Made by a program: the position numbers and the translations under genes. A DNA stretch of 64,000 nt. Source: Bactericera cockerelli. Its lineage: Eukaryota > Arthropoda > Insecta > Hemiptera > Triozidae. Shown here one piece after another: positions 5,376-63,345 of this stretch (within the stretch, counting starts at the first letter, position 1; each line of letters begins with the position of its first letter). The stretch spans positions 25,033,165-25,097,164 of the forward strand of contig CM044965.1 of the NCBI GenBank assembly GCA_024516035.1. The letters are read 5' to 3'. Under the pieces are notes generated by a model that saw only the letters and a program-made list of their open reading frames with translations, searched no databases and was not told the DNA's origin.

Positions 5376-5697
5376 ATGATGCATAAACCTATTAACGGTC
5401 GTTCTTTTAAATGCACAATGTCACGTCATTTGTTGCGATGTGTCGATGACGTCATGAATATACAGGGTGCAATCGGTGCATGTATAAACCTATTAACGGT
5501 CGTTTTTAAATGCCCAATGTCACGTCATTTGTTACGGTGTGTCGATGACGTCATGAATATACAGGGTGCATGTATAAACCTATTAACGGTCGTTTTTAAA
5601 TGCACAATGTCACGTCATTTGTTGCGGTGTGTCGATGACGTCATGAATGTACAGGGCGGTGTGTCGATGACGTCACGAATATACAGGGTGGTTCAGA
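5376..5697 (-). repeat. 92-101-bp array with CRE palindromes, 3' of MARVEL gene
   Basis: Three full units and one short unit. Each ends with the palindrome TGACGTCA (5447, 5546, 5636, 5668), and the full units also carry the half-type CACGTCATTTGTTGCGG or a close variant. It starts 10 bp past the stop codon of the MARVEL gene, so it is 3' UTR or immediate downstream DNA. An H repeat has inserted in the outermost unit. Confidence 0.9.
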
Positions 5698-5706
5698 AGG
5701 CACTGT

Positions 5707-5781
5707 TTAGATTCCTTTGTAGGACTTGTACGCGAGGACCGCACTCACAATGTAGAGGGCGGATACGATGAGACCCAGGAC
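5707..5781 (-). CDS. MARVEL-domain protein, last coding exon with stop
   Basis: Encodes residues 142-165 and the TAA stop (5707-5709). It holds membrane helix 4 (VLGLIVSALYIVSAVLAY) and a short cytoplasmic end KSYKGI. A CTCTCTTTCAG acceptor precedes 5781, phase 0. The total of 165 residues is normal for the CMTM/MAL group. The 3' flank runs straight into a tandem array carrying CRE palindromes (5376-5697). I see no convincing AATAAA on the minus strand in the first few hundred bases, so the 3' end of the transcript is unknown. Confidence 0.88.
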   Translation of the reverse strand, partial: VLGLIVSALYIVSAVLAYKSYKGI

Positions 5782-6217
5782 CTGAAAGAGAGAGAAGAAA
5801 GATTTATAAATAACGAGCCGTTTTTTTCCCAATAATTTTATTATATTTTATTTTAATATTCATACATATCCTTCATTTATTATTTAATAGTTACTGCAAT
5901 CCAATGTACTTTTCAGTATGTGGTACCGTTTGCCCGTACTTCGCAACGGTACTAAATTTCAAATTTACTAAGGCATGGCCGTACTGCTGGACAGTCATGC
6001 CTTTTTGAATAATTTTTCTGGGTAATGCGATAATGGTGTTGGAGGGGTTGATTCTCATGAAAATAAATTGTGATATCTGTTACCGTTTGGGCTGTGGTAT
6101 TGTAAACAGACACCCCCCAATAGATACATAGTCAACTGTAGCCAAGCTGGCTACAACAACAACAATTTTTTTTTTGTTGCTTCTGTCAACACTTTAATCA
6201 GAACCAAAATTCCGACC

Positions 6218-6473
6218 GCCAGCGTCGATGGCATGTTGAATACACCGGTTCCCTTCAGAACACCGAAGTTAAGCGACATCCAGCGAGGTTAAGACTTGGA
6301 TGGGTGACCATTCAAATTCTAATTCTCGTGACGCTGGCTTTTCCCGGCCCCACTCAGGCTGGGTCAATGTGAGTAGTAGGTTTGTGAGTTTCCTGCGAAT
6401 GGAGGGTAAAACCCCCGTCGTGATATGACCATGGCAGTTGAAAGCGACGTTAAACCCCACTTTAAAAAAAAAA
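6218..6473 (+). mobile_element. Family F SINE (5S rRNA head), complete with target duplication
   Basis: The first ~120 bp follow 5S rRNA: TTGAATACACCGGTTC, CACCGAAGTTAAGCGACATC, ACTTGGATGGGTGACC, covering the internal promoter boxes. Then the body shared with family D and a poly(A). The 12-bp AAAATTCCGACC flanks both sides (6206-6217 and 6474-6485), showing LINE-type integration. Confidence 0.93.
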
Positions 6474-6607
6474 AAAATTCCGACCAAAGCAATGCCTGAC
6501 AGAAATATTGGCGTAAACTATAAAAGATCTGGTTTCTTGGTCATGTTATGGTAAGTGTTCATTGCACAAACTGGTGGGGATTTCAGTAAAAAAGTATCAA
6601 ATTCACA

Positions 6608-6851
6608 AATCACCGGTTCTCGTTGGAACACCGAAGTTAAGCGACATCCAGCGAGGTTAAGACTTGGATGGGTGACCATTCAAATTCTAATTCTCGTGAC
6701 GCTGGCTTTTCCCGGCCCCACTCAGGCTGGGTGAGGTCAATGTGAGTAGCAGGTTTGTGAGTTTCCTGCGAATGGAGGGTAAAACCCCCGTCGTGATATG
6801 ACCATGGCAGTTGAAAGCGACGTTAAACCCCACTTAAAAAAAAAAAAAAAG
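6608..6851 (+). mobile_element. Family F SINE, 5'-truncated
   Basis: Starts within the 5S-like head at CACCGGTTCTCG and is otherwise almost identical to the copy at 6218-6473, with poly(A) at 6835-6851. It ends 46 bp from the donor of MARVEL exon 3. Confidence 0.9.
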
Positions 6852-6897
6852 GTTTAGAAAGGCCTCAACCATGCTGATGGCAGGAAGCAATACTCAC

Positions 6898-7017
6898 AGA
6901 GATGACGAAGTAAGGTCTCTGGTAGTGGGTGTTATACTTGTCGTTGCTGACCTCCAGGAGGAGAATGCAGGAGGCGATGAGGTAGAAAATGAAGGCACCT
7001 CCATGATAGATGAATTC
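6898..7017 (-). CDS. MARVEL-domain protein, coding exon 3
   Basis: Exactly 40 codons, residues 102-141, phase 0 at both ends. It carries membrane helix 3 (FIYHGGAFIFYLIASCILL) and a hydrophilic loop ending in YFVIS. The acceptor is TCTCTCCAG before 7017 and the donor GTGAGT is at 6892-6897. The order of helices and the short loop between helices 3 and 4 fit the MARVEL fold. No partial copies of this exon are visible nearby, unlike its neighbours. Confidence 0.88.
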
Positions 7018-7169
7018 CTGGAGAGACAGAAATAAATAAGTTTAATAATAATAATGCTCGGTATACGGGTACATTTACTAACGGAATAATACCTAAATAA
7101 GGGGCAAGGACTTCGATTGTTATAGACCTCTCTTTAAATAAATTTTCATACAATACCTAAATAAAGAGG

Positions 7170-7240
7170 TGCTTTGTTAAACTGTTGGCATAATGGGACT
7201 ACCTGTCGTGCGCTGACAGTCTAAATAAAGCACTACTTAT
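7170..7240 (+). mobile_element. C-type tail variant
   Basis: Tail only: TGTTGGCATAATGGGACTAC then AATAAAGCACTACTTATAC. The same variant occurs at 21853-21920, 31329-31385 and (minus) 58556-58640. Confidence 0.7.
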
Positions 7241-7470
7241 ACTTATACCTTTATACAAATTATTATACATGTCAAAAAACAAATTAAAAGGAACAATGTA
7301 AACACAATTTAGAGAGAGAGAGGGCTGGTTGATATTTTTTAAATTAAAAACTATCGACTGGGGTATTGTATGAGAGGTCTCGATGTCCTCATGCCTGATT
7401 GAACATTTATAAATTGATAGTTGAATCTGTGTGAGGTCTACAGTTCACAGAACTACTAGTTATTATGCTG

Positions 7471-7566
7471 ACTCAACTTACAAAATTGTGGTCTTAGCTA
7501 TGATGGAGGCTGTGCTGATCGATATGAGACATGACACGAGCAGCAAAAAGCTACCCAAATACCCAT
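7471..7566 (-). pseudogene. Donor-side half copy of MARVEL exon 2 (older)
   Basis: About 90 nt similar to the donor side of the exon at 8110-8298, with an ACTTAC donor and several substitutions plus a small indel. It ends at a CATCTCTCACAC segment shared with the next copy. Confidence 0.85.
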
Positions 7567-7634
7567 CTCTCACACAAGGAATTATTATAATAATAATATA
7601 ATAATAATGCCTTTTCTTTGTGTTATTATGTCAC

Positions 7635-7889
7635 AATTTTAGTGGGTAGCGCAGAATCACAGTACTTTACCACTTTAATTTACAATATCTTGTATTATTT
7701 TTTTTGCCTAAGATTCTGCCACTGGTCGCTGCTTCACATTAAAGCAGCTACTCATTTTTCCTCACGAGGTATGAGTGGACCCCGCACATCCAAGTACAGA
7801 GCGGAAAAAATCCTCCCCCGCTGGGAATCGAACCCAGGTCACCATGTGTGCAATGCCTAGCGCGCTAACTCGCTCTGCCACAGTGACTA
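7635..7889 (-). mobile_element. Family J SINE, complete
   Basis: The minus-strand head is tRNA-like (GCAGAGCGAGTTAGCGCGCTAG; B box GGTTCGATTCCC). The body carries ATACCTCGTGAGGAAAAATG and the CACTAAAATTGTGACATA end. It separates the two decayed copies of MARVEL exon 2. Confidence 0.8.
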
Positions 7890-7897
7890 CAAGGAAT

Positions 7898-8006
7898 TAT
7901 TAATATGCTGACTCAACTTACAAACGTGGTCTTAGCTATGATAGAGGCTATGCTGATCAAGATAAGGTATGAAAGAAGCAGTAGAAAGCTGCCCAGATGC
8001 CCATCT
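7898..8006 (-). pseudogene. Donor-side half copy of MARVEL exon 2 (second)
   Basis: Same exon half and donor as the copy at 7471-7566, but with different substitutions (ATAGAGGCTATGCTGATC). It lies 100 bp downstream of the true donor; a family J SINE separates the two copies. Confidence 0.87.
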
Positions 8007-8109
8007 CACACACTCGGAAATATTATTATGCTGATACAACTTAGAGAAAGCTGCGAAGGCCGCGGTGAAATAAATGAATGAATGGCAAGACTTTGCTGAC
8101 TAAACTTAC

Positions 8110-8298
8110 AAACGTGGTCTTGGCTATGATGGAGGCTGTGCTGATCGAGATGAGGCATGACAGGAGGAGCAGAAAGCTGCCCAGAAAGAAGGCGGTGGCT
8201 ATGCAGATGAAGAAAGCCTCGGGTCGGTTGGAGGTAAAGTTGTGAAAGTAGACGTCTGAGTTGTAAATGTAGATACCGAGGATGATGGCGCCGATTAT
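8110..8298 (-). CDS. MARVEL-domain protein, coding exon 2
   Basis: Encodes residues 39-101 and continues the frame of the first coding exon in phase 0. It completes membrane helix 1 (IIGAIILGIYIY), then an outer loop with an Asn-Phe-Thr glycosylation sequon at about residue 58, then helix 2 (AFFICIATAFFLGSFLLLL, about residues 66-88). The CAG acceptor is at 8299-8301 and the GTAAGT donor at 8104-8109. It is separated from the first coding exon by an 8950-bp intron full of SINEs, GA repeats and tandem arrays. Two diverged copies of its donor-side half lie downstream at 7471-7566 and 7898-8006. Confidence 0.9.
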
Positions 8299-8369
8299 CT
8301 GAAAGCAACGGAAAAGAAATAAAATTAACCAAAAACCACCAATACGTCTTTTTCTTTATAGTTTTTAAA

Positions 8370-8569
8370 CTCTTTAGTGGAAGATAACCACCAGGCGAGG
8401 TTAATGCTCAAACCATTTTGTACACTAACCCTCAGAGACTTATTATTATGTGGTCACAAACTCAGATTGATGAGGAAAAATTCATGCACTGGGTGGAATT
8501 CGAACCAACGGATCCCTACGGTCCCTGGAATGCCAGACTAGCGCGTTAACCACTTGACTACCAGTGCAC
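8370..8569 (-). mobile_element. Family B SINE, complete
   Basis: tRNA-like head with a long variable-arm look on the minus strand (ACTGGTAGTCAAGTGGTTAA; B box GGTTCGAATTCC). The tail runs TTTGTGACCACATAATAATA to CCACTAAAGAG. Confidence 0.88.
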
Positions 8570-9340
8570 AAGTAAGATTCCAATAGACATTTCTTGGCTC
8601 TGGATAAATATGAGTTATTTACTTTACTTTCCGTGTCCATGTGTGATGTCATGGTGGTGGAAGGATCGATATGGGTGAACCCTTTGGACACCCAGAACTA
8701 GTGTTCTGGGCTCCTTCCGTGTGTCCAGTGTATGGTGTATGTGTAGTGTGTTGAAATAATGCACTTAAAAAATAACATGAGTTTAACATAATAATCCGAT
8801 TGTTTTTTTTTTTTTGGTTGAAGGGAAAAATCTTTTAAAGACACCCAGGTCATTCTGACTTGGGGTGTGGGATTTCCACCCACTAAAAAACCACCTTCTC
8901 AAAGAGCTAACCGCACCTGGAACCGAAAAATATCATTACTTCAAGTGCTCTGATTGTTACACTCAATAAGTTTGTGAACACTTGAACAGCACTGATATAA
9001 TGAAATATGTATCACACATTGCATACACAATAGTTAACAGGCGAACATACGATTATAATATTTCTTTATTATAATAAATGTCGATAAAAAATAATGTATT
9101 TAATTTGTATGCACATAGGTAATTCCTCATTGGCTTCAAGTTTACCGTGTATTTTGTCAAAGGTATATGATACAAGTGACACAGTGATATATGTATGATA
9201 CGAGTGACACAGTGTCCAGACTACCACTAGTACAATATGACCCTACTGACTCAACTCATATTATCCTGCACACCTTGTACCGAGGACCTATGACTCATGG
9301 CGTGAGTCACAGAGTAGGCACTAGGCAGTTCCTCCCGAGA
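8570..9340. other. No gene seen in intron 1 stretch
   Basis: Contains a 20-bp palindrome at 8690-8712 (CCAGAACTAGTGTTCTGG). The rest is unclassified AT-rich DNA with a duplicated ATGATACAAGTGACACAGTG piece near 9166-9212. Confidence 0.5.
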
Positions 9341-9412
9341 CCTCCGTGGCTCAGTGGTTAAGAGCACTGGTTACTGACCCGGAGGTTGCGGGTTCGAATC
9401 CCGGCCAGAGAG
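9341..9412 (+). mobile_element. tRNA-like head of a SINE
   Basis: Reads CCTCCGTGGCTCAGTGGTTA (A box) to GCGGGTTCGAATCCCGGCC (B box), then AGAAAAATTCTGACC. A related minus-strand copy is at 61980-62096. No paired acceptor stem, so not a working tRNA gene. Confidence 0.7.
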
Positions 9413-9469
9413 AAAAATTCTGACCTAGTTTTTTGAATTTTGAAAATTCTGTGCACCATCATTTATTAT

Positions 9470-10690: not shown

Positions 10691-10704
10691 TTTGGGTAGA
10701 CAAA

Positions 10705-10826
10705 GAGAGAGTGTGTGTGTGAGAGAGAGAAGGAAATTGAGTATGTATGTGTGTGAGAGAGAGAGAAAAGAGAGAGAGATAAGGAAATTGAGTATGTATG
10801 TGTGATAGAGAGAGAGAAAAGAGAGA

Positions 10827-10882
<56 letters not shown>

Positions 10883-12656: not shown

Positions 12657-12837
12657 GGGTGGCGTCATCGTGAACGATGGTAGCCAGACAGTGGAGGAAT
12701 GACTCAGCACTGCTACCACTGTCTTTAGAAGGAGGCTCATAATTGACAGAACCAAGTCAATGCTGGTTTACTCCCTGTTTATAGTCCCCCAGCCAGACTG
12801 CTGGTCTACTCCATGTTTATAGACCCCCAGCCAGACT
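12657..12837 (+). mobile_element. Family H repeat
   Basis: Preceded by (CAT)n. Runs AGGGTGGCGTCATCGTGAAC to CCCCAGCCAGACT, with the last ~37 bp (GCTGGTCTACTCC..) duplicated once. Confidence 0.85.
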
Positions 12838-16336: not shown

Positions 16337-16446
16337 CATATTATTATTATCATATAGGTTCGTACTGCGTGCGTGGGACGGAACTTGATCTAGTGCACTG
16401 CCGTGATTTTGTTTTTCTAAGTAGGTGTATATTATTTTCTGTGCTT

Positions 16447-16975
16447 TCTATTCTACTTACAACTTGTGCCAGCTTGAGTAGGCCGGGCAGAGTCTTGAGG
16501 TAGTCTATTCTATTCTATTCTACTTACAACTTGTGCCAGCTTGAGTAGGCCGGGCAGAGTCTTGAGGTAGTCTATTCTATTATATTCTACTTACAACTTG
16601 TGCCAGCTTCAGTAGGCTGGGCAGAGTCTTGAGGTAGTCTATTCTATTCTACTTACAACTTGTGCCAGCTTGAGTAGGCCAGGCAGAGTCTTGAGGTAGT
16701 CTATTCTATTCTATTCTACTTACAACTTGTGCCAGCTTGAGTAGGCCGGGCAGAGTATTGAGGTAGTCTATTCTATTCTACTTACAACTTGTGCCAGCTT
16801 GAGTAGGCCGGGCCGAGTCTTGAGGTAGTCTATTCTATTCTATTCTACTTACAACTTGTGCCAGCTTGAGTAGGCCGGGCCGAGTCTTGAGGTAGTCTAT
16901 TCTATTCTACTTACAAATTGTGCCAGCTTGATTAGGCCGGACACAGTCTTGAGGTAGTCAATTCTATTCTACTAA
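16447..16975 (-). repeat. 62-67-bp array copied from donor edge of MARVEL first exon
   Basis: Eight units, each with the last ~45 nt of the coding exon at 17249-17373 (ACTTGTGCCAGCTTGAG on the plus strand), an intact GTAAGT donor and a (TATTC)n linker. It lies in intron 1 about 270 bp downstream of the true donor. The last unit is the most diverged. Confidence 0.92.
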
Positions 16976-17248
16976 AGTGGCCTAACACATGCTTTGCATT
17001 ATTGGCCACTTAAACTTGCCATGTTAAGTCTCCTCTGTAAATAAATATCATTTAAAAAAAAAAAAAAAAAAAAAAAAAACTTGCCATATTTTAGTGTTCG
17101 GAAGTATTGTGTTCGTTTTTGTAAAAAAAAAATATTTTTTGCTCCGATTTCAATTTTTTTACATTTAAATTTTATTTATGAAGATGAAAGAATTTGTTGA
17201 ATAAAAAATAATCTTTTGAAGGTACTAAAAAAAAAAAAAAAAACTTAC

Positions 17249-17373
17249 CACTTGTGCCAGCTTGAGGAGGCCGGGCAGAGTCTTGAGGTAGCCGGTGTTG
17301 AGGATGATGGCGGAGGTGGTGGTGGAGGTGGTGGTGCGAGTCACGGTGACGGTGTGGGACATGTTGGCGTGAT
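17249..17373 (-). CDS. MARVEL-domain (CMTM/MAL-like) protein, first coding exon
   Basis: Starts the 165-residue, four-pass MARVEL-domain protein; the ATG is at 17360-17362 and encodes residues 1-38. The N-terminus is a Thr-rich tail (MSHTVTVTRTTTSTTTS) followed by a segment ending GLLKLAQV that leads into the first membrane helix. The exon ends with a GTAAGT donor (17243-17248) in phase 0. A CAG acceptor (17374-17376) lies 11 nt before the ATG, so a non-coding 5' exon must exist upstream. MARVEL proteins of the CMTM/MAL/plasmolipin group are small tetraspanning proteins of membrane apposition and vesicle traffic; the Thr-rich start resembles insect CMTM4-like proteins. Both edges of this exon are copied into arrays (16447-16975 and 17385-18430). 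The family call is firm; the exact ortholog is not. Confidence 0.9.
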
Positions 17374-17384: not shown

Positions 17385-18430
17385 AAGAGGAGGAGAGAAT
17401 TCGCATGAACCACCCTGTATGTTTCATAGATTTAAAAACAAGTGCACTGGTAGTGACGGCGTTGGGAAGAGGAGAGTATTCGCATGAACCACCCTGTATG
17501 TTTCATAGATTTAAAAACAAGTGCACTGGTAGTGACGGTGTGGGGAAGAGGAGAGTATTCGCATGAACCACCCTGTATTTTCCATAGATTTAAAAACAAA
17601 GTTAAAAACAAGTGCACTGGTAGTCAAGTGGTTAACGCGGTAGTCTATTATAATAGTGTTACAAATTTAAAATGATAGGATAGTCCCTTTTCTCAACGGT
17701 GTGGGACATGTTGGCGTGATCTGTGGAGGGGAAGAGGAGAGTATTCGAATCATGAACCACCCTGTATTTTTCATAGATTTAAAAACAAGTGCAATGCTAG
17801 TCAAGTGGCGCGGTAGTCTATTATAATAGTGTTACAAATTTAAAATGATAGGATAGTCCTCTTTCTCAACGGTGTGGGACATGTTGGCGTGATCTGTGGA
17901 GGGGAAGAGGAGAGTATTCGCATGAACCACCCTGTATTTTTCATAGATTTATTAACAAATTAAGTTAAAAACAAGTGCACTGGCAGTCAAGTGTTTGGCG
18001 TGATCTGTGGAGGGGGAAGAGGAGAGTATTCGCATCATGAACCACCCTGTATTTTTCATAGATTTAAAAACAAATTAAGTTAAAAACAAGTGCACTGATA
18101 GTCAAGTGTTTGGCGTGATCTGTGGAGGGGGAAGAGGAGAGTATTCGCATGAACCACCCTGTATGTTTCATAGATTTAAAAACAAGTGCACTGGTAGTGA
18201 CGATGTGGGGAAGAGGAGAGTATTCGCATGAACCACCCTGTATTTTTCATAGATTTAAAAACAAATTAAGTTAAAAACAAGTGCACTGGTAGTCAAGTGT
18301 TTGGCGTGATCTGTGGAGGGGGAAAAGGAGAGTATTTGAGTGGAAGAGCTCACTTGTGAGAACCCTGCCACTTTAAAGAAAGCCATAATAAAAAAAAAAG
18401 TATTCGCATGAACCACCCTGTATTTTTCAT
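17385..18430 (-). repeat. Array copied from acceptor/ATG edge of MARVEL first exon
   Basis: About nine repeats of a unit with CATGAACCACCCTGTAT, TTTAAAAACAAGTGCACTGG and, in several (17699, 17871, 17993, 18000, 18109, 18300), the exon's acceptor side. Two include the duplicated start codon region (GGACATGTTGGCG). Pieces of a B SINE head (GTAGTCAAGTG) have been swept into the unit. Confidence 0.85.
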
Positions 18431-18694
18431 AGATTAAAAAACAAAAACTAGTGCACTGCATGGTGTTCAAGTGGTTAACGCGGTAGTTCATTATAATAGT
18501 GTTACAAATATAAAATGATAGGATAGTACCCTTTCTCAAAGTTAAAAAAAAAACTGTGTTCAGAAATTTCTAATACTACTACACTATCTCAATAGACCGT
18601 CGAACCTGGATATAATAAGATAACTCAAGGGACAGGAATTTTTTCTCCCTTATATTCAGGTTTCTCTTATAAAGAGGTTATTTTCCCGGATTGT

Positions 18695-32080: not shown

Positions 32081-32332
32081 AAAGTGGGGTTTAACGTCGC
32101 TTTCAACTGCCATGGTCATATCACGACGGGGGTTTTACCCTCCATTCGCAGGAAACTCACAAACCTGCTACTCACATTGACCTCACCCAGCCTGAGTGGG
32201 GCCGGGGAAAAGGAAGCGTCACGAGAATTAGAATTTGAATGGTCACCCATCCAAGTCTTAATCTCGCTGGATGTCGCTTAACTTCGGTGTTCTGAAGGGA
32301 ACCGGTGTATTCAACATGCCATCGACGCTGGC
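32081..32332 (-). mobile_element. Family F SINE (5S head), complete with target duplication
   Basis: Full minus-strand element almost identical to 6218-6473, with poly(A) as T run 32062-32080. A 13-bp TTTATGATATTTT duplication lies at 32053-32065 and 32333-32345. Confidence 0.93.
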
Positions 32333-40817: not shown

Positions 40818-41036
40818 GCCAGCGTCGATGGCGCGTTGAATGCACCGGTTTTCGTAGGAACACCGAAGTTAAGCAACGTCCAGTGAAGTGAATACTTCGT
40901 GATGCTGGCCTTCCGGCCCAACCCAGGCTAGGTGAGGTTAATGTGGGTAGCAGGATTCTGTTCCTACGAATGTAGGGTAACACCCCCGTCGTAATATGAC
41001 CATGCAGTTGAAAGCGACGTTGAACCAAAAAAAGTA
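40818..41036 (+). mobile_element. Family F SINE
   Basis: 5S-like head (GTTGAATGCACCGGTTTTCG, CACCGAAGTTAAGCAACG) with the 3' part of the 5S sequence deleted; shared body; short A tail. Confidence 0.83.
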
Positions 41037-43042: not shown

Positions 43043-43259
43043 TAGGGTAGCGTCAGCGTGAACGATGGTAGCCAGACAGTGGAGGAATGACTGAGCAGTT
43101 CTACCACTGTCTTAATTGACAAGTGCCCCCAGAACCAAGCTAATGCTGGTCTACTCCCTGTTTATAGTCCCCCAGCCAGACTGCTGGTCTACTCCCTGTT
43201 TATAGTCCCTCAGCCAGACTGCTGGTCTACTCTCTGTTTGTAGTCCCCCAGCCAGACTA
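43043..43259 (+). mobile_element. Family H repeat with triplicated end
   Basis: Full H after (CAT)n; the last ~36 bp (CTGGTCTACTCCCTGTTTAT) occur three times. AACATCAT flanks both sides (43029 and 43259), a target duplication. Confidence 0.85.
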
Positions 43260-50189: not shown

Positions 50190-50355
50190 CTACGCCACGG
50201 AAGGAGTGGACAAGGCATTCTCTCGCATGATAGCAGTGGACATGTTGACGATGACGAAGAGACAGCAGAGGAGCAGAGGTCCTATGATGGCGCCCTCCAT
50301 CCCCAGCCAGAACACACCCCCCGCCACTGATAGGCCGGTCAGATAGGGGTGACCT
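50190..50355 (-). CDS. TMEM245: TMEM245 last exon with stop
   Basis: Completes a Gly codon, then 54 codons and TAG (50190-50192). Encodes GHPYLTGLSVAGGVFWLGME and the helix AIIGPLLLCCLFVIVNMS, then a short tail MRENALSTPSVA. Acceptor CTTGCAG. The vertebrate protein continues some 40-50 residues past this point, so this tail is short. The stop is followed at once by GTAACC, which could be a donor, but the stop precedes it in frame. The tail, stop and flank are repeated five times at 49905-50189. Confidence 0.88.
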
Positions 50356-51432: not shown

Positions 51433-51607
51433 CCTTGTATTTCATTAAAAATGGCCGTGTCTACGAAGAAGGTGGGTAGTATTTGGAACATGAGTAGCAG
51501 TAGGGCTTTGAACCCATTGTCTTGTGCTAGGTACAGATCCAGGACCCCCGGAATACACGCCCAGTAGGGACCCAGGATGGGAATAGCTGCTAGAATTGAA
51601 GCTATGG
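51433..51607 (-). CDS. TMEM245: TMEM245 exon 6 of window
   Basis: Two bases completing Ala, 57 codons and two trailing bases (phase 2). Encodes the most conserved part of the family: AAIPILGPYWACIPGVLDLYL, then a helix KALLLLMFQILPTFFVDTA. Acceptor GTTTCAG, donor GTGAGA (51427-51432). No exon-edge copies are visible here. A minus-strand LINE reverse-transcriptase fragment lies in the upstream intron (51770-51995). Confidence 0.92.
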
Positions 51608-52298: not shown

Positions 52299-52553
52299 TT
52301 TTTTTTTAATAAATGGGTAATATTTTTAACCCAAGTAGCAGGAGTTTTATTATCCTGTGTTAGGTATAGATCCCACCCATAGCATTAATTCAAATTTCAG
52401 CCAATGCATGCATTTTCCTCATAAATTTGAGATTAATCGGACCTGGAAAGATTTCTTTTATGTTGTTGTTTCTCTTACATCCAGTTCTCTTACATCCAGG
52501 TTCAACTGTACTAGTCATGCTCAGTGTAGCTTAACTTCAGAGCAAAGAGGTCT

Positions 52554-53227
52554 CACCTGAAGGTATGTAAACCAGTTGCACTTGGAACAGGATATGGATC
52601 AGCCAAGTCCACAGGCCATAGAATAGAGCCAGCTTAACAATCCTGTGATACTAGTCATGCTCAGTGTAGCTTAACTTCAGAGCAAAGTAATCTCACCTGA
52701 AGGTATGTAAACCAGTTGCACTTGGAACAGGATATGGATCAGCCAAGTCCACAGGCCATAGAATAGAGCCAGCTTAACAATCCTGTGATACTAGTCATGC
52801 TCAGTGTAGCTTAACTTCAGAGCAAAGTGATCTCACCTGAAGGTATGTAAACGATGGTCTCCAACCAACTTTATTTCAAAATTGGCTTGTTCTGAACCAC
52901 ATATTTCTATGTGCGATCAACCATCGCATCGTGAGAACTTGGACTTTTCCTGTATAAGTCATTCAACCCTTAGGAAACTGAGAGCTAGCTTGGCTTGCTA
53001 GGGTTGGCTAGTCTGTTCTCTGTTTAGAGTCCTCTAGTGAGACACTGGTCTTCTCCCTGTTTAACATTAACTTTAGTATAGCCTCACCTGAAGGTATGTA
53101 AACCAGTTGCACTTGGAACAGGATATGGATCAGCCAGGTCCACAGGCCATAGAATAGAGCCAGCTTAACAATCCCGTGAGACTAGTCATGCTCAGTGTAG
53201 CTTAACTTCAGAGCAAAGTAATCTCAC
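52554..53227 (-). repeat. 139-bp array copied from TMEM245 exon 5 edge
   Basis: Copies at 52554-52692, 52693-52831, a fragment at 52832-52850 and one at 53083-53221, each with the last 86 nt of the exon at 53228-53358, the CAG/GTGAGA donor and about 50 bp of intron. A family I retroposon (52851-53070) interrupts one unit. Copies are nearly identical. Confidence 0.92.
52851..53070 (+). mobile_element. Family I repeat inside exon-5 array
   Basis: GATGGTCTCCAACCAACTTT to CTGGTCTTCTCCCTGTTTAA. Its end resembles family H (TCTACTCCCTGTTTATAG). The array text TCACCTGAAGGTATGTAAAC stands on both sides. Confidence 0.75.
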
Positions 53228-53358
53228 CTGAAGGTATGTAAACCAGTTGCACTTGGAACAGGATATGGATCAGCCAAGTCCACAGGCCATAGAATAGAGC
53301 CAGCTTAAACGAGGCAGTTAGGACTTCGTGCACAGCTGTTTCTATGGCAACGGCTAGT
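53228..53358 (-). CDS. TMEM245: TMEM245 exon 5 of window
   Basis: One base completing Lys, 43 codons, one trailing base (phase 1). Encodes AVHEVLTASFKLALFYGLW and the following helix WLIHILFQVQLVYIPS, a highly characteristic TMEM245 stretch. Acceptor TTTTCCAG, donor GTGAGA (53222-53227). A 5S-derived SINE (53384-53600) sits only about 25 bp upstream of the acceptor. The last 86 nt and donor recur in four downstream copies (52554-53221). Confidence 0.91.
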
Positions 53359-54415: not shown

Positions 54416-54516
54416 TTGTTTCCATAGACAGGACTCACTGATGTGATGATCTGAACTGGTTTATACAACTTTCCACTGGAGCTTAGGAGGTAGAATAGAC
54501 CCGTCAGGAATACAAC
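54416..54516 (-). CDS. TMEM245: TMEM245 exon 4 of window
   Basis: 33 codons plus two bases. It encodes a membrane helix and the family signature VVFLTGLFYLLSSS followed by YKPVQIITSVSP. Acceptor CTGTCAG precedes 54516; donor GTGAGA is at 54410-54415, phase 2, which completes a Lys codon with the next exon. A roughly 95-bp AT-rich unit is repeated about 2.5 times immediately on the acceptor side (54536-54765), but it does not include exon sequence. Confidence 0.9.
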
Positions 54517-54535
54517 CTGACAGACAGTGAACAGA

Positions 54536-54765
54536 ATTTTAAATTACAAAATTATTTTTAAGCTTAAAAAACAGTAGCTTAAACTGGCGCAGTTTTTTTT
54601 TACAATTAAATAAAATTTTCATCCAGAAATTTGAAATTACAAAAAATTAAGCTTAAAAAATAATAGCTTAAACTGGCGCAGTTTCTTTTACAATTCAATC
54701 AAATGTTTATCCAGAATTTAAAATTACAAAAAAAATTAAGCTTAAAAACAATAGCTTAAACTGCT
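54536..54765. repeat. ~95-bp AT-rich tandem repeat beside exon 4
   Basis: About 2.5 units with AGCTTAAACTGGCGCAG, beginning 20 bp upstream of the exon-4 acceptor. It ends in a C-family tail (54768-54810). Confidence 0.85.
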
Positions 54766-54810: not shown

Positions 54811-55340
54811 TTATATTATTATTATTATGAGAGTCAATATCTTTATATTATGTATGATTTCTTCAATACTTATATTTGATATTCACTTTTTTTGTATCTT
54901 TAGGTACATTATTTACATGTTTTATTTTTTATTATACATTGTGAGTGACAATGTTATTGGCGGGTGTTGATACTTGTAACATCATCTAGCTGTTTTGTTT
55001 ATTCACACAAATAAATTCAAATTCAAATTATCATCATTTGTTTGTAAATAAATAAAAATTTGTCTTGGGCTTACTGCTGGAGTAATGGGACTTTAACTGT
55101 CCTATTCGGGCAGTATAAATAAGGCGATATTATTATTATGTTTGATTTAATTCTCAGGTTTTTTCCTGGATATCTTTATGATAATGTACGGGATTTCTCC
55201 AAGCACAATCATCATTCAATTCCTATTATTATTATTATTATTATCAATATTCCCCATTTATTGTGAGGGAATCAATCAACTGTTTGTTTTTCACTTTAAA
55301 TAAATAAATTCAAATTTGTAAATAAATAAATTGTTTGTCT
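54811..55340. other. No gene; C tail and AT-rich DNA
   Basis: A C-family tail at 55063-55137; otherwise (TAA)-rich intron DNA with no further exon. Confidence 0.5.
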
Positions 55341-55345
55341 CTTAC

Positions 55346-55480
55346 GATGTTGATGAAGAAGTTGAGCACCGCGAAGCCGCTCTCACACACGAGAGACACG
55401 AGAGTGGTGAGCGCCTGGATGGCGAGGCCAAGGTTGGCTTTCATCAGGAGCCACAGGGACTCGAGGCCAGAGCTCAGCAT
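55346..55480 (-). pseudogene. Donor-side half copy of TMEM245 exon 3
   Basis: 135 nt identical to the donor-side part of the exon at 56687-56871, including a CTTAC donor on the plus strand, then broken off at CAGCAT. It lies 1.2 kb downstream in the intron and lacks an acceptor of its own. Confidence 0.92.
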
Positions 55481-56686: not shown

Positions 56687-56871
56687 GATGTTGATGAAGA
56701 AGTTGAGCACCGCGAAGCCGCTCTCACACACGAGAGACACGAGAGTGGTGAGCGCCTGGATGGCGAGGCCAAGGTTGGCTTTCATCAGGAGCCACAGGGA
56801 CTCGAGGCCAGAGCTCAGCATAGCCATGTTGTTGTTCAGGAGGAGGGAGATGGTCCTCATGTTCATGAGCT
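56687..56871 (-). CDS. TMEM245: TMEM245 exon 3 of window
   Basis: Two bases completing a Glu codon plus 61 codons, leaving phase 0. Acceptor CTCCTCAG, donor GTAAGC (56681-56686). It encodes amphipathic and membrane-associated segments (LESLWLLMKANLGLAIQ, then SGFAVLNFFINI). This matches the part of TMEM245 preceding the VVFLT..FYLLSSS helix of the next exon. It is the only full-length copy among five: a 135-nt donor-side copy at 55346-55480 is identical to it, and three acceptor-side copies lie at 57669-57795, 58038-58164 and 58407-58533. Confidence 0.9.
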
Positions 56872-57668: not shown

Positions 57669-57795
57669 GTTGTGAGCGCCTGGATGGCGAGGCCAATGTT
57701 GGCTTTCATCAGGAGCCACAGGGACTCGAGGCCAGAGCTCAGCATAGCCATGTTGTTGTTCAGGAGGAGGGAGATGGTCCTCATGTTCATCAGCT
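57669..57795 (-). pseudogene. Acceptor-side half copy 1 of TMEM245 exon 3
   Basis: Carries the acceptor (CCTCAG) and the first two thirds of the exon, then passes into CT repeats. One Leu-to-Ile type change (AATGTT for AAGGTT). The frame closes within the GA/CT tract before the next GTGAGT. Confidence 0.88.
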
Positions 57796-57870
57796 CTGAG
57801 GAGGAGCAGAAGTACAGGGTCTGCCATTATTGTTAGGTGGAATAATTATATAATCCTATAAACAACTCAC

Positions 57871-58164
57871 CCATTATCTCCCTCTCACACCCTTTCTTTC
57901 TCAGTCTCTCTCTCCCTCTTTCTCTTTCTCTCACTCTCTCTCTCTTTCTCTCACTCTCTCTCTCTTTCTCCCTCTCTTTCTGTCTCTCTCTTTCTCTCTC
58001 TCTCTTTCTCTCACTCTCTCTCTTTCTCTCTCTCTCTGTTGTGAGCGCCTGGATAGCGAGGCCAAGGTTGGCTTTCATCAGGAGCCACAGGGACTCGAGG
58101 CCAGAGCTCAGCATAGCCATGTTGTTGTTCAGGAGGAGGGAGATGGTCCTCATGTTCATCAGCT
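57871..58164 (-). other. Possible 294-nt cassette exon (half copy 2 of TMEM245 exon 3)
   Basis: Begins with the duplicated acceptor and 127 nt of exon 3, runs stop-free through an Arg/Glu-coding GA tract, and meets ATGG/GTGAGT (donor at 57865-57870). Its length is divisible by three and it is phase 1 at both ends, the same as the junction it would sit in. Its use as an exon is inference; nothing shows it is transcribed. Confidence 0.4.
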
Positions 58165-58239
58165 CTGAGGAGGAGCAGGAGTACAGGGTCTGCCATTATT
58201 GTTAGGTGGAATAATTATATAATCCTATAAACAACTCAC

Positions 58240-58533
58240 CCATTATCTCCCTCTCACACCCTTTCTTTCTCAGTCTCTCTCTCCCTCTTTCTCTTTCTCT
58301 CACTCTCTCTCTCTTTCTCTCACTCTCTCTCTCTTTCTCCCTCTCTTTCTGTCTCTCTCTTTCTCTCTCTCTCTTTCTCTCACTCTCTCTCTTTCTCTCT
58401 CTCTCTGTTGTGAGCGCCTGGATAGCGAGGCCAAGGTTGGCTTTCATCAGGAGCCACAGGGACTCGAGGCCAGAGCTCAGCATAGCCATGTTGTTGTTCA
58501 GGAGGAGGGAGATGGTCCTCATGTTCATCAGCT
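58240..58533 (-). other. Possible 294-nt cassette exon (half copy 3 of TMEM245 exon 3)
   Basis: Near-identical tandem copy, 369 bp upstream of the previous unit, with the same 294-nt length, phases, Arg/Glu-coding GA tract and GTGAGT donor (58234-58239). The two share an identical 108-residue open frame. Confidence 0.4.
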
Positions 58534-58939
58534 CTGAGGAGACAGGAGAGGAGTATAAGTATAAGTAGTGCTTTATTTAGACTGTCAGCGCAAGACCGGT
58601 AGTCCCATTATGCCAACAGTTTAACAAAGCACCTCTTTATTTATTTGAGTATAAATACAATTTAAATAAATTAGCAATTAGAGTAAAGATAATAAAAAAC
58701 AAGAAAAGGAAATAATAGCAGAAGATAGTGTAACTTTGATAGTGATTGTTTTCTTGCCAACAGATTCAATAAGGGAAGATCTAAATCGAAAGAAAGATTT
58801 ACAGTTGAGGATGGGGAGTGGAATGGAGCTCCAAAGGGCAATTGAGGATGACAGGAATTCCTTGTGATATGCTTCTGTTCAACAGGATGGGATTTCAAGG
58901 AGGAGGAGAGTAGAACTACAGGGTCTGCCATTATTGTTT

Positions 58940-59112: not shown

Positions 59113-59125
59113 TTGTTAGGTGGAA

Positions 59126-59860: not shown

Positions 59861-60533
59861 AAAAATATTAAAGTGGGTAATATTTTTAACCCAAGTAGCA
59901 GGAGTTTTACTATCCTGTGCTAGGTATAGATCCCACCTAAAGCATGATTTTTTCCTCTTGAATTTGATTTTGTGACCACATAATAATAAGACTCTGAGGA
60001 TCTTTAAAAAAATACTAGATTCCATATATCGTCAGCTGAAGGGTAAAACTGACTATCTGCATTTGGACAATTTTTCAGGAGAGCCGCGCAAAGTTTTGGC
60101 GTGGCGGGCCTTCCTGAAAAATCTTCCCGGTGGACTGTTTTGCACTCACAATTGAATTTTTCTACTTTATTGCATCGATAAAACCTTGATTTCACCAAAT
60201 GAATCTTATAATGTTGATTTCTTCATCGAAAAAAATCTCCACCAGTCTTTCAGGTAAAAATTGTTTTTCGCTTTTTCCTGCGGATATGTTTAAATACTAC
60301 CCAACTTTTGATTTTTAGCCAATAGTTAGGTTAATTTCCGACCAGAGTAACGAAGAATCGGAAAAATGACCAACTGTGACTTGGTCAGTTCTACCTTCTA
60401 ACAATCTAAACGACGATACATAATTTCTTAGAATGAGGATGGAGGATCTGACAACTGACTGAGAAGTGGTTTTCAGAGTTGCTTCTTTGCAAGAAAGAGT
60501 GGATTTTGGTATTATTATTATTCCCGGTCTGTC
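59861..60533. other. No gene; perfect-arm hairpin at 60070-60122
   Basis: Mostly unclassified intron DNA. ATTTTTCAGGA (60070-60080) pairs perfectly with TCCTGAAAAAT (60112-60122). Confidence 0.45.
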
Positions 60534-60534
60534 C

Positions 60535-60731
60535 TGTCCCGGTGGCTCAGTGGTAAAGGGTGGCACTCTGTGAATCCAGTGATTCCAGAGGTCGTGGGTT
60601 CGAAACCCAGCCGGGACATGACAAGTTGTCCTCTCATTTGGGATTTTTACCTCATAATAATACGTCTTGGGCTTACTGCTGGAATAATGGGACTGAAGAG
60701 TTCTAATCGGGCAGTATAAATACGGCGATAT
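60535..60731 (+). mobile_element. Family C SINE, complete
   Basis: TGTCCCGGTGGCTCAGTGG head, complete tail. A ~38-bp segment (AGAGTTGCTTCTTTGCA..GAGTGGATTTT) flanks it at 60476 and 60751. Confidence 0.87.
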
Positions 60732-60804
60732 TATTTATTTATTTATTTTTAGAGTTGCTTCTTTGCAACAAAGAGTGGATTTTTGATTTATTATTATTAC
60801 TAAC

Positions 60805-61284
60805 CCGGCGTCTTCTGTATGTGTTCCAGAAACTATTATTATTATTACTAACCCGGTGTCTTCTGTATATGTTCCAGGAATTATTATTATTACTACTAAC
60901 CCGGCGTCTTCTGTATGTGTTCCAGGAATTATTATTATTACTACTAACCCGGCGTCTTCTGTATGTGTTCCAGGAATTATTATTATTACTACTAACCCGG
61001 CGTCTTCTGTATGTGTTCCAGGAATTATTATTATTACTACTAACCCGGCGTCTTCTGTATATGTTCCAGGAATTATTATTATTACTACTAACCCGGCGTC
61101 TTCTGTATGTGTTCCAGGAATTATTATTATTACTACTAACCCGGCGTCTTCTGTATGTGTTCCAGGAATTATTATTATTACTACTAACCCGGCGTCTTCT
61201 GTATGTGTTCCAGGAATTATTATTATTACTACTAACCCGGCGTCTTCTGTATGTGTTCCAGGAATTATTATTATTACTACTAAC
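60805..61284 (-). repeat. 48-bp array copied from TMEM245 exon edge
   Basis: Ten head-to-tail 48-bp units, each with the last 28 nt of the exon at 61285-61483, its GTTAGT donor and a short (TAA)n intron piece. Spacing is exactly 48 bp from 60812 to the true exon edge at 61292. Because 48 is a multiple of three, long open frames run through it in other frames, but none is coding. Confidence 0.93.
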
Positions 61285-61483
61285 CCGGTGTCTTCTGTAT
61301 GTGTTCCAGGAAGCTGGTCCAGGACTGAGAGACAGCACCCGTGGACACCTTGGGCCCCATATCGCCGTCGTTCTCCAGCACCGAACTCAGCCACGCCTGG
61401 TAGATGCGGTCCCACAACTCGAGGACCGTGCTTTCGAACTCCGCCACCTTCTCTTTTTTCACGCCTTTCAGCAAATTACCCAC
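61285..61483 (-). CDS. TMEM245: TMEM245 exon 2 of window
   Basis: 66 codons plus one base (phase 0 in, phase 1 out). Acceptor GCTCAG precedes 61483; the donor is the weaker GTTAGT at 61279-61284. It carries a soluble linker with the conserved LELWDRIYQAW segment and ends SFLEHIQKTP. The phase-1 exit fits the phase-1 entry of the exon at 56687-56871 exactly. The 3' 28-nt edge, its donor and 20 bp of intron are repeated ten more times at 60805-61284. In the true frame, read-through past the donor meets TAG at once, so use of a later donor would truncate the protein. Confidence 0.88.
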
Positions 61484-61654
61484 CTGAGCAAAGGAATGAA
61501 AGATTTGAAACAAGTGGCAGACAATGCCCGAGGCATTAACTTCGCCCCGGAAATAAAATAAAGTGTAAATAAATAAAATACACTCTGCCGCGCTGTTTCT
61601 CTCTTTGTATAGGCGTTCTGCACACCTCGGCCGAGGTGTTTGATTATACTACAA

Positions 61655-61844
61655 AGGACCAACAGGCGAGGTTATAATGCTCAAAGCATTTTCTACCACC
61701 GAATCCTCAGAGTCTTATTATTATGTGGTCACAAACTCAAATGAATGAGGAAAAATTTATGCATTGGGGGGGATTCAAACCCAACGGATCTCTACGCTAC
61801 CTGGATTACCGGACTAGGGCGTTAACCACTTGACTACCAGTGCA
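61655..61844 (-). mobile_element. Family B SINE, complete
   Basis: Full minus-strand copy in the first TMEM245 intron of the window. Confidence 0.86.
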
Positions 61845-61979
61845 TAAAATATGATAACTTAAAAAAAAAACTTAAAAATCCTAAGAAATCTTTATAAAAA
61901 CTCGGAAATCTTTTAAAAAAAGGTAATTGTGCCCCGGCACCGCTTTCGCATGACTTCAGGGCACTTTACCTTAACATCC

Positions 61980-62096
61980 ATGCCATTCCGAAAACGGAAA
62001 AAAATCGGTCAGAATTTTCGGCTCCGACCGGGATTCGAACCCCCATCCTCCGGGTCAGCAACCAATGCTCTTGAACACTGAGCCACGGAGGTCGGC
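61980..62096 (-). mobile_element. tRNA-headed SINE, second copy of the 9341 type
   Basis: Minus-strand head CTCCGTGGCTCAGTGTTCAA; B box GGGTTCGAATCCCGGTC, then GAGCCGAAAATTCTGACC. Confidence 0.72.
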
Positions 62097-62145
62097 AAGA
62101 CATTTTATTTTATTTTAATAATATTGTAATAAATGGGAATACATA

Positions 62146-62290
62146 CCGACCTCAGTAACTCAATCGATAAGGCGGCGGACTCGTAACATGGAGGTCGGTG
62201 GTTCGAGTCCCAAGTTAAACATACATTTAGGAAGGTGAGTTTGATTAATAATTGTGACATCACATCGTGATTAACACAAATATGATAACT
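62146..62290 (+). mobile_element. Family A SINE, complete
   Basis: Plus-strand copy, head GACCTCAGTAACTCAATCGA. Confidence 0.86.
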
Positions 62291-62354
62291 TAAATGGGAA
62301 TACATCCCGTCAGTTCTTGTTAAAAAAATAAGACATCCTTCGAAACTCACCATC

Positions 62355-62517
62355 ACAGGGTGGCGTCATCGTGGACGATGGTAGCCAGACAGTGGAGGAA
62401 TGACTCGGCACTTCTACCACTGTCTTTACAATGAGGCTAATAATTGACAAGGGCCCCCAGAAACAAGCCAATGCTGGTCTACTCCCTGTTTATAGTCCCC
62501 CAACTAGACTATCTTAG
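62355..62517 (+). mobile_element. Family H repeat inside exon-edge array
   Basis: AGGGTGGCGTCATCGTGGAC to CCCCAACTAGACT. It splits an ACTCACCATCTTAGAA unit, with ATC at both junctions. Confidence 0.84.
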
Positions 62518-62822
62518 AAATCTCACCATGTTCAAAACTCACCATCTTAGAAAACTCACCATCTTAGAAAACTCACCATCTTAGAAAACTCACCATCTTA
62601 GAAACTCACCATCTTCGAAACTCACCATCTTAGAAACTCACCATCTTAGAAACTCACCATCTTCGAAACTCACCATCTTAGAAACTCACCATCTTAGAAA
62701 ACTCACCATCTTAGAAAACTTACCATCTTAGAAAGCTCACCATCTTAGAAAACTTACCATCTTAGAAAACTCACCATCTTAGAAATCCCCACCCGCCCAT
62801 ACGTGTACGTATTATTCAACTG
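62515..62822 (-). repeat. 16-bp array copied from donor edge of exon 63049-63345
   Basis: About 15 units of 15-17 bp (ACTCACCATCTTAGAA on the plus strand), which is the donor plus last exon bases of the neighbouring TMEM245 exon. It closes at 62784-62822 with a longer diverged copy of the same exon end (CCCGCCCATACGTGTACG). An isolated unit at 62340-62353 lies beyond an inserted H repeat (62355-62517), so the array once extended further. Confidence 0.88.
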
Positions 62823-62823
62823 G

Positions 62824-63014
62824 GGTGGAAGAGATTGTCATAGGCAATAACCCCGCCCTTTAGTTAGGACATATATTTTCAAATATTTTCTATTCTTTTT
62901 CATATTTATTGTATATATTGTTTTTTTTTTGTCATTTTTTCACTGTTAAAATTATTTTTTGTATGTACATAATGTCCTTTTGTATCTATTAAAAAATTGT
63001 ACAATAATAATAAT
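62824..63014 (+). mobile_element. Family G retroposon, complete
   Basis: GGTGGAAGAGATTGTCATAG to ACAATAATAATAATGA; ends 34 bp from the donor of exon 63049-63345. Confidence 0.82.
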
Positions 63015-63048
63015 GACTGAGGTCGGTAAGAAATCCTCAGAAACTCAC

Positions 63049-63345
63049 CATCTTAGAGATCCCCGCCCGCCCATACGTGTACGTATTGTTCAGCACCGCG
63101 TCCACCTTGCCCTCCCAGTCCTCGGGCAAATACTGCATCACCTCCGGGTTGTGAACCAGCGTACTGTTGATCAGACTGCCCGCCAGCTTCACCAGGTGGA
63201 ACGTCTCTCCGTACGCTTGCACAAGGAAAAAGAGCGACGCGAACACGAGAAGGACGCTGAGCGCTAGGATGACGAGAACCGACGCTACTGCGTCGCTACA
63301 TTCGCGAAACAGCGAGAGACACCAGAGACGCCAGGCCATGTTTAT
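63049..63345 (-). CDS. TMEM245: TMEM245-like multipass protein, internal exon (first in window)
   Basis: Encodes 99 codons, phase 0 at both ends; acceptor TTCCAG before 63345 and donor GTGAGT at 63043-63048. Contents: a long membrane helix (AVASVLVILALSVLLVFAS, codons 19-37 and beyond), then an outer segment with N-S-T and N-N-T sequons and the YLPEDWE motif. TMEM245 (C9orf5) is a multipass membrane protein distantly related to the bacterial AI-2E/PerM family; its biochemical role is not established. Although a Met codon is the third codon, the vertebrate protein is about 880 residues, so several N-terminal exons probably lie beyond 64000. The last bases of this exon and its donor seed a tandem array at 62515-62822. 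Confidence 0.9.

What the first reader, a model, noticed from the sequence alone, without database searches (positions are those of the whole stretch)
5376..63345. Exon edges copied into tandem arrays at most exons of two unrelated genes
Seven of eleven recognised coding exons (MARVEL exons at 17249 and 8110; TMEM245 exons at 63049, 61285, 56687, 53228 and 50190) have their splice-site or stop-codon edge duplicated into the neighbouring intron or 3' DNA, in 1 to about 15 copies with units of 16 to 370 bp. Donor-side copies always lie downstream and acceptor-side copies upstream, as expected if segments straddling an exon boundary duplicate in tandem and only one copy stays joined to a whole exon. 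I know of no described class of repeat that does this exon after exon. The caveat is that arrays also arise from SINE tails here (15387, 34223), so exons may just be where the origin is recognisable.
Basis: partly seen in the sequence, partly recalled or inferred. Interest (0 to 1): 0.9.

Follow-up and report, generated by a model that had tools for sequence, protein, structure and literature searches.

The report
Exon edges copied into intron repeats
In this eukaryotic genome the ends of many sampled coding exons are copied, splice site included, into repeat arrays in the neighbouring intron, about four times more often than at comparable positions, which hints at a mutation process tied to GC-rich exons.

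Summary
In detail: 7 of 11 exons (9 of 22 edges) have a splice-site or stop edge copied nearby. It is not peculiar to the window. In exon stretches from the window's own genome, fetched without looking for repeats, 13 of 69 kinase exon edges have a copy in the intron, against 3.7-4.1% of other positions under the same rule (under a looser rule 10.6-12.0%). With kinesin exons, leaving out one pre-noticed locus, it is 14 of 88: 4.2-fold, 95% 2.0-7.3. Kinesin alone (1 of 19) shows no excess. Donors and acceptors are alike (8/48, 6/40). The excess lies in multi-copy arrays (8.9-fold); single copies are 2.2-fold, P=0.08. It is confined to GC-rich exons: 13/52 edges against 1/36. Arrays differ between two copies of the locus. 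Best reading: short tandem duplications arise often at GC-rich exons; those inside exons are purged, those across an edge survive and grow into intronic minisatellites. The hot spot is inferred; species, RNA and raw reads could not be examined.

The parts
17249..17373 (-). MARVEL gene exon M1 (start codon exon)
   Evidence: splice sites and frame; Pfam PF01284 with M2, E=4e-4
16446..16971 (-). array of M1 donor edge (exon tail + GTAAGT), 64-67 bp x8
   Evidence: 87.8-95.9% to 17243-17291
17387..18445 (-). tandem copies of M1 acceptor/ATG edge and adjoining intron, 79-, 115- and 173-bp units
8110..8298 (-). MARVEL exon M2
7906..7997 (-). copy of M2 donor edge, 88%
7466..7557 (-). second copy of M2 donor edge, 88%
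6898..7017 (-). MARVEL exon M3, no edge copy
5707..5781 (-). MARVEL last exon M4; 90-bp array 5379-5661 lies just past its stop but holds no exon sequence
63049..63345 (-). TMEM245 exon E1
   Evidence: Pfam PF01594 on joined exons, 3.8e-6
62511..62785 (-). 17-bp x16.6 array of E1 donor edge (CTAAGATG|GTGAGTTTT)
62767..62818 (-). longer copy of E1 donor edge, 94%
61285..61483 (-). TMEM245 exon E2
60788..61312 (-). 48-bp x10.9 array of E2 donor edge, contiguous with the exon
56687..56871 (-). TMEM245 exon E3
55338..55480 (-). copy of E3 donor edge, 99.3%, about 1.3 kb downstream
57669..58541 (-). three copies of E3 acceptor edge in a 369-bp TC-rich unit
54416..54516 (-). TMEM245 exon E3b; 88-bp array at 54532-54763 lies beside it without exon sequence
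53228..53358 (-). TMEM245 exon E4
52509..53168 (-). 140-bp units of E4 donor edge (52509-52852, 53083-53168), 97-99%
51433..51607 (-). TMEM245 exon E5; single here, donor edge copied in the second copy of the locus
50190..50355 (-). TMEM245 last exon E6 with stop codon
49920..50239 (-). 43- and 106-bp units of E6 stop edge

Best explanation
GC-rich exons of this genome are hot spots for short (about 17-370 bp) tandem duplication. Duplications wholly inside an exon damage the protein and are purged; those with one end in the exon and one in the flanking intron leave a complete exon with a working splice site, plus a spare exon-edge/splice-site copy in the intron, and so are close to neutral. 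The spare copies then grow and shrink by unequal exchange or slippage into minisatellites that can be pushed away from the exon by transposon insertions. SHOWN here: the copies, their excess over matched positions in the pooled sample, symmetry of donors and acceptors, dependence on exon GC, predominance of multi-copy arrays, and difference in length or presence between two copies of this locus. INFERRED: that the excess is mutational (for example breaks repaired by fill-in and end joining, or meiotic breaks at GC-rich exons), that purging inside exons shapes the pattern, and that insertions moved some arrays away.
For: Kinase exon edges 13/69 against 4.1% (n=4000), 3.7% GC/complexity-matched (n=3500, P=1.2e-6), 3.7% on a dense grid (n=7894). 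Pooled 14/88, locus-level bootstrap 4.2-fold (2.0-7.3), P about 0.001. Stable over 12 threshold settings (12-15 of 88, P 3e-6 to 5e-4). GC step without exon: 4.1% of 2500. GC-rich edges 13/52 against 5.2-7.7% of comparably GC-rich non-exon positions; GC-poor 1/36, no excess. Multi-copy 9/88 against 1.15% (8.9-fold). Introns shared by the two locus copies have the same background (4.2%) as unshared ones (4.1%), so age of the position is not the reason. Differences between the two locus copies: donor edge of exon 63049 copied only in the window; donor edges of exon 51433 and of a putative exon just beyond the window copied only in the other; stop-edge array 0.3 kb against about 3 kb.
Against: The kinesin set alone is 1/19 without the pre-noticed locus (P=0.5; 3/21, P=0.04 with it). 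Under a looser rule that also counts positions inside arrays, background is 10.6% or 12.0% (matched) and the kinase excess only 1.6- to 1.8-fold. Single-copy duplicates are only 2.2-fold (5/88, P=0.08), which one-sided decay alone could give. Repeat coverage within 450 bp of exons is hardly above background: 13.9-16.3% in all (4.7-7.9% not touching the exon plus 6.8-10.9% anchored on it) against 13.2% (SE 1.7) in random stretches, so the excess is in where arrays start, not in how much repeat there is. The stop edge of exon 50190 is not a classical splice site. GC-rich non-exon controls are also raised (to 7.7%). Taking the highest single background stretch (7.1%) the per-exon excess is only P=0.035. 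No mutation rate was measured.
Confidence: 0.5

Rival explanations
1. Survivorship only: tandem duplication is uniform, but a copy whose partner is a conserved exon edge stays recognisable longer and can be lost only from one side, so exon-anchored pairs accumulate.
For: Single-copy edge duplicates are 2.2-fold over background, about the two-fold this predicts; repeat coverage near exons is hardly raised overall.
Against: Multi-copy arrays are 8.9-fold; pairs of 95% identity or more, too young for decay to matter, are 5/69 against 0.65-1.2%; GC-poor exons, equally coding, show none; shared and unshared intron positions have equal background. Homogenisation within arrays could make old arrays look young, so it is not excluded.
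Confidence: 0.25
2. Selection for arrays: spare splice sites help define the exon (extra U1 or U2AF binding) in long, repeat-rich introns, so arrays that carry an intact splice site are kept.
For: Units carry the splice site itself; the GT or AG was unchanged in 84 copies from 18 edges (0/168 against 205/2541 at other scanned positions).
Against: Copies are not independent and many scanned differences lie outside the units; counted by site in 16 of the 18 sets it is 0/32 against 22/301, P=0.09. A stop-codon edge is arrayed too. No RNA data.
Confidence: 0.1
3. Assembly artefact: false tandem expansions at exons.
For: The assembly holds many similar-scoring pairs of kinase genes on the same contig, so it is not clean; raw reads are not available here.
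Against: Different loci have their own units and unit variants; some arrays are separated from their exon by stretches with poly-A runs (M1, L027, L060); two copies of one locus have related arrays of different length; assembly errors more often shorten arrays than make them (general knowledge).
Confidence: 0.07
4. Composition: GC-rich islands in AT-rich DNA duplicate at their edges whether or not they are exons.
For: Excess only in GC-rich exons; GC-rich non-exon controls rise to 7.7%, and these may include unrecognised exons.
Against: GC-step controls stay at 4.1% (n=2500); GC-rich exon edges are still 3.3 to 4.8 times GC-rich controls.
Confidence: 0.12

Closest known systems
Variable internal tandem repeats at exon-intron boundaries of human segmentally duplicated genes (De Grassi and Ciccarelli 2009, PMC2812944; outline and passages read)
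   Same: Minisatellite-sized units at an exon-intron boundary; copy number varies between copies of a gene.
   Different: There: 27 intron modifications among genes in segmental duplications, discussed as making new introns from exon repeats. Here: about one exon edge in six sampled, in conserved kinase and kinesin genes, extra copies lying in introns beside complete exons, confined to GC-rich exons.
Intron gain by tandem duplication of coding sequence with a proto-splice site (Drosophila, PMC2891723; abstract and outline read)
   Same: Short tandem duplication that includes exon sequence, with one copy intronised.
   Different: There the duplication creates a new intron inside an exon; here it straddles the border of an intron beside a complete exon.
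Pseudogenic (decaying) exons in mammals (PMC2718932; abstract and outline read)
   Same: Exon copies decaying near the parent exon.
   Different: Disabled exon copies associated with 0.4-1.0% of genes; here only the edge is copied, often many times, at 11 of 50 sampled exons.
Small tandem duplications from fill-in and end joining at DNA breaks (PMC8355091; abstract and outline read)
   Same: A known route to short tandem duplications.
   Different: No link to exons in the abstract; breaks were not observed here.
Mutagenic repair of programmed meiotic breaks in the human germline (PMC7615360; start of abstract seen in the search listing only)
   Same: A known source of structural mutations at breaks.
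   Different: Human; whether breaks sit on GC-rich exons in this organism is unknown.

Membership tests
Minisatellite / VNTR | Head-to-tail array of units of about 10-100 bp or somewhat more | tested here: met
   TRF: 17-bp x16.6, 48-bp x10.9, 64-67-bp x8, 43/106-bp arrays
Minisatellite / VNTR | Copy number varies between alleles or paralogues | tested here: met
   E6 stop edge 0.3 kb against about 3 kb, M1 donor 8 against 24 plus 10 copies, E5 and a putative upstream exon copied only in the other copy; allelic status of the two copies not proven
Exon-intron boundary repeats (as in PMC2812944) | Unit contains coding-exon end plus adjoining intron across a splice site | tested here: met
Exon-intron boundary repeats (as in PMC2812944) | Alternative transcripts retain or splice out the repeat | not testable with these tools
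   no RNA data for this genome
Intron gain by tandem duplication | A new intron at a novel position inside a formerly continuous exon | tested here: inconclusive
   copies lie in introns beside complete exons whose joined reading frames need no new intron, but intron positions could not be compared with other species
Tandem duplication of whole exons (mutually exclusive exons) | Copy holds both splice sites and the whole exon | tested here: not met
   window copies hold one edge only; kinesin locus L093 may be an exception (three adjacent HMM matches)
Transposable element | Copies of the unit dispersed at unrelated loci | not tested
   the genome search for the E2 array did not complete; a 301-bp query over exon E1 found only this locus, its nearby edge copy and the second copy of the locus, in a search that skips common words

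The most novel reading that the evidence does not exclude
Exons themselves, specifically GC-rich ones, are germline hot spots of short tandem duplication in this organism, so that about one GC-rich exon edge in four carries a splice-site minisatellite or copy; introns next to exons are partly made of copies of those exons, and arrays can exchange sequence with the exon edge (M1 carries the array version of its own edge, with two silent differences, in one of two locus copies). This would be an exon-linked mutational process not found described in the papers searched.
Probability: 0.4. Interest if true: 0.85.

Novelty: new variant of a known kind. Interest (0 to 1): 0.7.

Why it matters
If the pooled excess holds genome-wide, about one exon edge in six in this organism carries a spare copy of its own splice site next door, in arrays that change length between copies of a locus. 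That would be a natural library of duplicated splice sites for asking how the spliceosome picks the right one, a source of pseudo-exons and mis-annotation, a class of highly variable gene-linked markers, and a hint that exons and not just introns set where short duplications arise. It makes a mutational question directly testable: are new tandem duplications centred on GC-rich exons?

Tried and rejected
Rejected: exon methylation and repair of deaminated CpG as cause, because edge-array exons have higher CpG observed/expected (0.81 in 11 against 0.57 in 41, P=0.009) and higher GC, not lower CpG. Rejected: position age (fast intron turnover leaves only exons old enough), because intron positions shared and not shared between the two locus copies have equal background. 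Rejected: composition or low complexity as detection bias. Rejected: mRNA retrocopies, because copies carry intron sequence and lie next to their own exon. My first, simple tests gave a smaller excess: about two-fold, P 0.025-0.08, 13/69 against 9.0-13.1% by group. They count positions deep inside arrays, which an exon edge cannot be, and were replaced by the rule, which I reasoned to be equivalent to asking whether an ancestral position was ever duplicated. All are reported.

Inconclusive: ends of 20 long-frame kinase matches at the first in-frame stop, 0/20 with an edge copy; two of the 20 (L066, L067) look like the same gene twice, the stops are not RNA-verified, and only 5 of 20 are GC-rich, so this does not decide between splice-specific and GC-linked models (0/20 has P=0.03 under the exon-edge rate; P=0.24 if only the five GC-rich count). 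Conservation of splice dinucleotides in copies: striking by copy, not significant by site (counted by hand, leaving out L047 and E4). Unit-end comparison of seven arrays was not informative about microhomology. Two edge arrays seen by eye are not in the strict counts: L027 donor (counted only at E 1e-3) and L035 acceptor (splice score 4.6). PMC6823432 (passages) was not relevant.

Not done: species or taxon (a PF02949 search was sent thirteen times and never answered); dispersal of the E2 array (not completed); homologous proteins (database switched off); sister species, RNA, raw reads; SINE-tail arrays.

Row selection: of 132 kinase matches I fetched 40 as exon stretches, chosen by hand before seeing any of their sequence: short open frames, no stop inside, one of each pair that looked alike by score and place; 20 further long-frame matches were used for gene ends. 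L093 was dropped from pooled counts because I had noticed three adjacent hits there before choosing it; with it the kinesin count is 3/21. Edges with splice score under 5 were dropped (16 of 104, L093 apart; none showed a copy by the rule). Two exons had no callable edge (50 of 52 count). Multi- and single-copy classes of the edges were set by hand.


Full report
WHAT IS THERE. The window lies at C11:25033165-25097164 of an unnamed 565-Mb, 1032-contig genome. That it is an animal is my inference from its genes and SINE-like repeats; the taxon search did not complete. Two genes lie on the minus strand: a four-exon MARVEL-domain gene (exons 17249-17373, 8110-8298, 6898-7017, 5707-5781) and the 3' part of a TMEM245-like gene (63049-63345, 61285-61483, 56687-56871, 54416-54516, 53228-53358, 51433-51607, 50190-50355); boundaries come from splice sites and a continuous reading frame and families from Pfam (PF01594 E=3.8e-6, PF01284 E=4e-4, both under Pfam's own cut-off). 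Nine of the 22 edges have a local copy that spans them (M1 donor and acceptor, M2 donor, E1, E2, E3 and E4 donors, E3 acceptor, E6 stop), in units of 17 to 369 bp.

IS IT MORE THAN CHANCE. Local repeats are common here: 17-21% of window positions lie in a same-strand copy pair no more than 1.5-2.5 kb apart. Against that, 9/22 edges is only a two-fold excess (circular-shift P 0.025-0.040; 8/22 and P 0.04-0.08 with a stricter overlap). That test is too lenient to the background, since an exon edge can only be in the outermost unit of an array. With the rule 'partner within 500 bp on the intron side and none on the exon side', the window has 7/22 edges against 4.2% of 973 other positions (P=2e-5).

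IS IT GENOME-WIDE. Because the window was picked for this feature, I went to exons picked for other reasons. Pfam PF00069 in the whole genome gave 132 matches; 40 internal-looking exons were fetched with 500 bp on each side. Of these 13 (18.8%) are spanned by a local copy in the intron. Background under the same rule: 4.1% of 4000 random positions (3.0% of 1107 in seven random 10-kb stretches), 3.7% of 3500 GC- and complexity-matched positions (P=1.2e-6), 3.7% of a 7894-position grid, 4.1% of 2500 positions at a GC step. Under a looser rule that lets positions inside arrays count, background is 10.6% or 12.0% (matched), so the kinase excess would be 1.6- to 1.8-fold. Thirteen kinesin exons gave 3/21 (P=0.04), or 1/19 (P=0.5) without L093, which I had noticed beforehand. 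Pooled without L093: 14/88, P=5e-6 by edge. Edges of one exon are not independent and background varies between stretches (0 to 7.1%); bootstrapping loci and stretches (the window's 2998 positions entered as six equal pseudo-stretches) gives 4.2-fold, 95% interval 2.0-7.3, P about 0.001; by exon 11/50, P=0.0003 at the mean background, 0.002 at 4.8% and 0.035 at the highest stretch. Twelve settings of filter, E-value and overlap give 12-15 of 88. Donors 8/48 and acceptors 6/40 are alike.

WHAT THE UNITS LOOK LIKE. Acceptor arrays repeat pyrimidine tract, AG and the first 7-15 bases of the exon (L049, L044, L062); donor arrays repeat the last 8-41 exon bases and the 5' splice site (L035, L047, L062). 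Some arrays touch the exon; others lie some 220-280 bp away beyond stretches with poly-A runs, which I take for insertions (window M1; L027, L060).

WHAT GOES WITH IT. Edge copies sit at GC-rich exons: 13/52 edges with at least 52% GC in the 100 bp inside against 1/36 below (Fisher P=0.006). GC-rich non-exon positions show 5.2% (GC at least 50%) to 7.7% (at least 54%), so GC explains part, not all. The excess is in multi-copy arrays (9/88 against 1.15%); single copies are 5/88 against 2.6% (P=0.08). Repeats that do not touch the exon are not denser near exons (4.7-7.9% against 13.2% for all repeats in random stretches). CpG observed/expected is higher, not lower, in array exons.

HOW FAST IT CHANGES. 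A second copy of the locus lies about 270 kb away on the same contig; 53% of the stretch 9957-63379 aligns in order at a mean 89% identity, and a run of 5000 N covers the place of E2 and of the E3 acceptor copies there (the listing was cut). Many kinase genes appear as similar-scoring pairs, so this may be an unpurged second haplotype, but a segmental duplication is not excluded. Exons comparable in both copies: M1, E1, E3, E3b, E4, E5, E6 and a putative next upstream exon just beyond the window. Copies in both: M1 donor and acceptor, E3 donor, E4 donor, E6 stop; only in the window: E1 donor (the N run begins about 1.1 kb from that exon, so a farther array would be hidden); only in the other copy: E5 donor (four in all, the exon's own included) and the upstream exon (three 43-bp units, the exon's own included); neither: E3b; E3 acceptor cannot be told. 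The E6 array is 0.3 kb in the window and about 3 kb in the other copy, the M1 donor array 8 against 24 plus 10 units. In the other copy the M1 exon carries the array version of its own end, with two silent differences.

MECHANISM. A duplication that straddles one edge leaves an intact exon and a spare edge in the intron, so it is nearly free of cost; one inside the exon is not. If events were uniform, an edge would be hit as often as any position. Longer persistence of pairs with one conserved member gives about two-fold, which fits the single copies; it does not give nine-fold for arrays, nor absence at GC-poor exons, nor an excess among pairs of 95% identity or more (5/69 against 0.65-1.2%). 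I therefore favour a duplication-prone state of GC-rich exons, filtered by selection, with later array growth. Which lesion is responsible is inference: break repair by fill-in and end joining makes short tandem duplications (PMC8355091, abstract), and meiotic break repair is mutagenic (PMC7615360, start of abstract in a listing). A role of the arrays in splicing is possible and untested.

LITERATURE. Ten searches of the held library found boundary minisatellites in human duplicated genes (PMC2812944) and intron gain by tandem duplication in Drosophila (PMC2891723); among the listed titles I saw none on genome-wide exon-edge arrays. Most subscription papers are not in that library, so absence from print is not claimed.

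LIMITS.

Noticed in passing
C11:25310001-25376000 (L004, L005, L012-L016), about 270 kb from the window on the same contig: A second copy of most of this locus, 53% of window 9957-63379 alignable at about 89% mean identity; many kinase and kinesin genes also occur as similar-scoring pairs on one contig, mostly 0.1-0.8 Mb apart and some farther, suggesting unpurged second haplotypes in the assembly.
   Followed up: partly
L012-L013 (C11:25319700-25319800): In the second copy the M1 exon end carries the array version of its sequence (two silent differences), as if array and exon exchanged sequence.
   Followed up: no
C11:8013127-8013937 (L093): Kinesin motor exon with three adjacent HMM matches to nearly the same model positions: a tandem run of larger exon pieces.
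   Followed up: partly
window 5379-5661 and 54532-54763: Arrays that begin about 15 bp outside an exon edge (after the M4 stop, counting the related 32-bp repeat to 5692; before the E3b acceptor) without containing exon sequence.
   Followed up: partly
window 12761-12837, 43144-43258 and about 62472-62510: A 38-bp unit (TGCTGGTCTACTCCCTGTTTATAGTCCCCCAGCCAGAC) in one to three copies at scattered places, apparently part of an interspersed repeat.
   Followed up: no
window 6218-6339, 32211-32332, 40818-40910: 5S rRNA-like matches over Rfam cut-off and, elsewhere, six tRNA-like matches, probably SINE heads.
   Followed up: no
exons of L024-L096 (kinase and kinesin exons, 52 of them): Exon CpG observed/expected spreads from 0 to 1.2, as in animals with mosaic gene-body methylation (the comparison is recalled).
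   Followed up: partly
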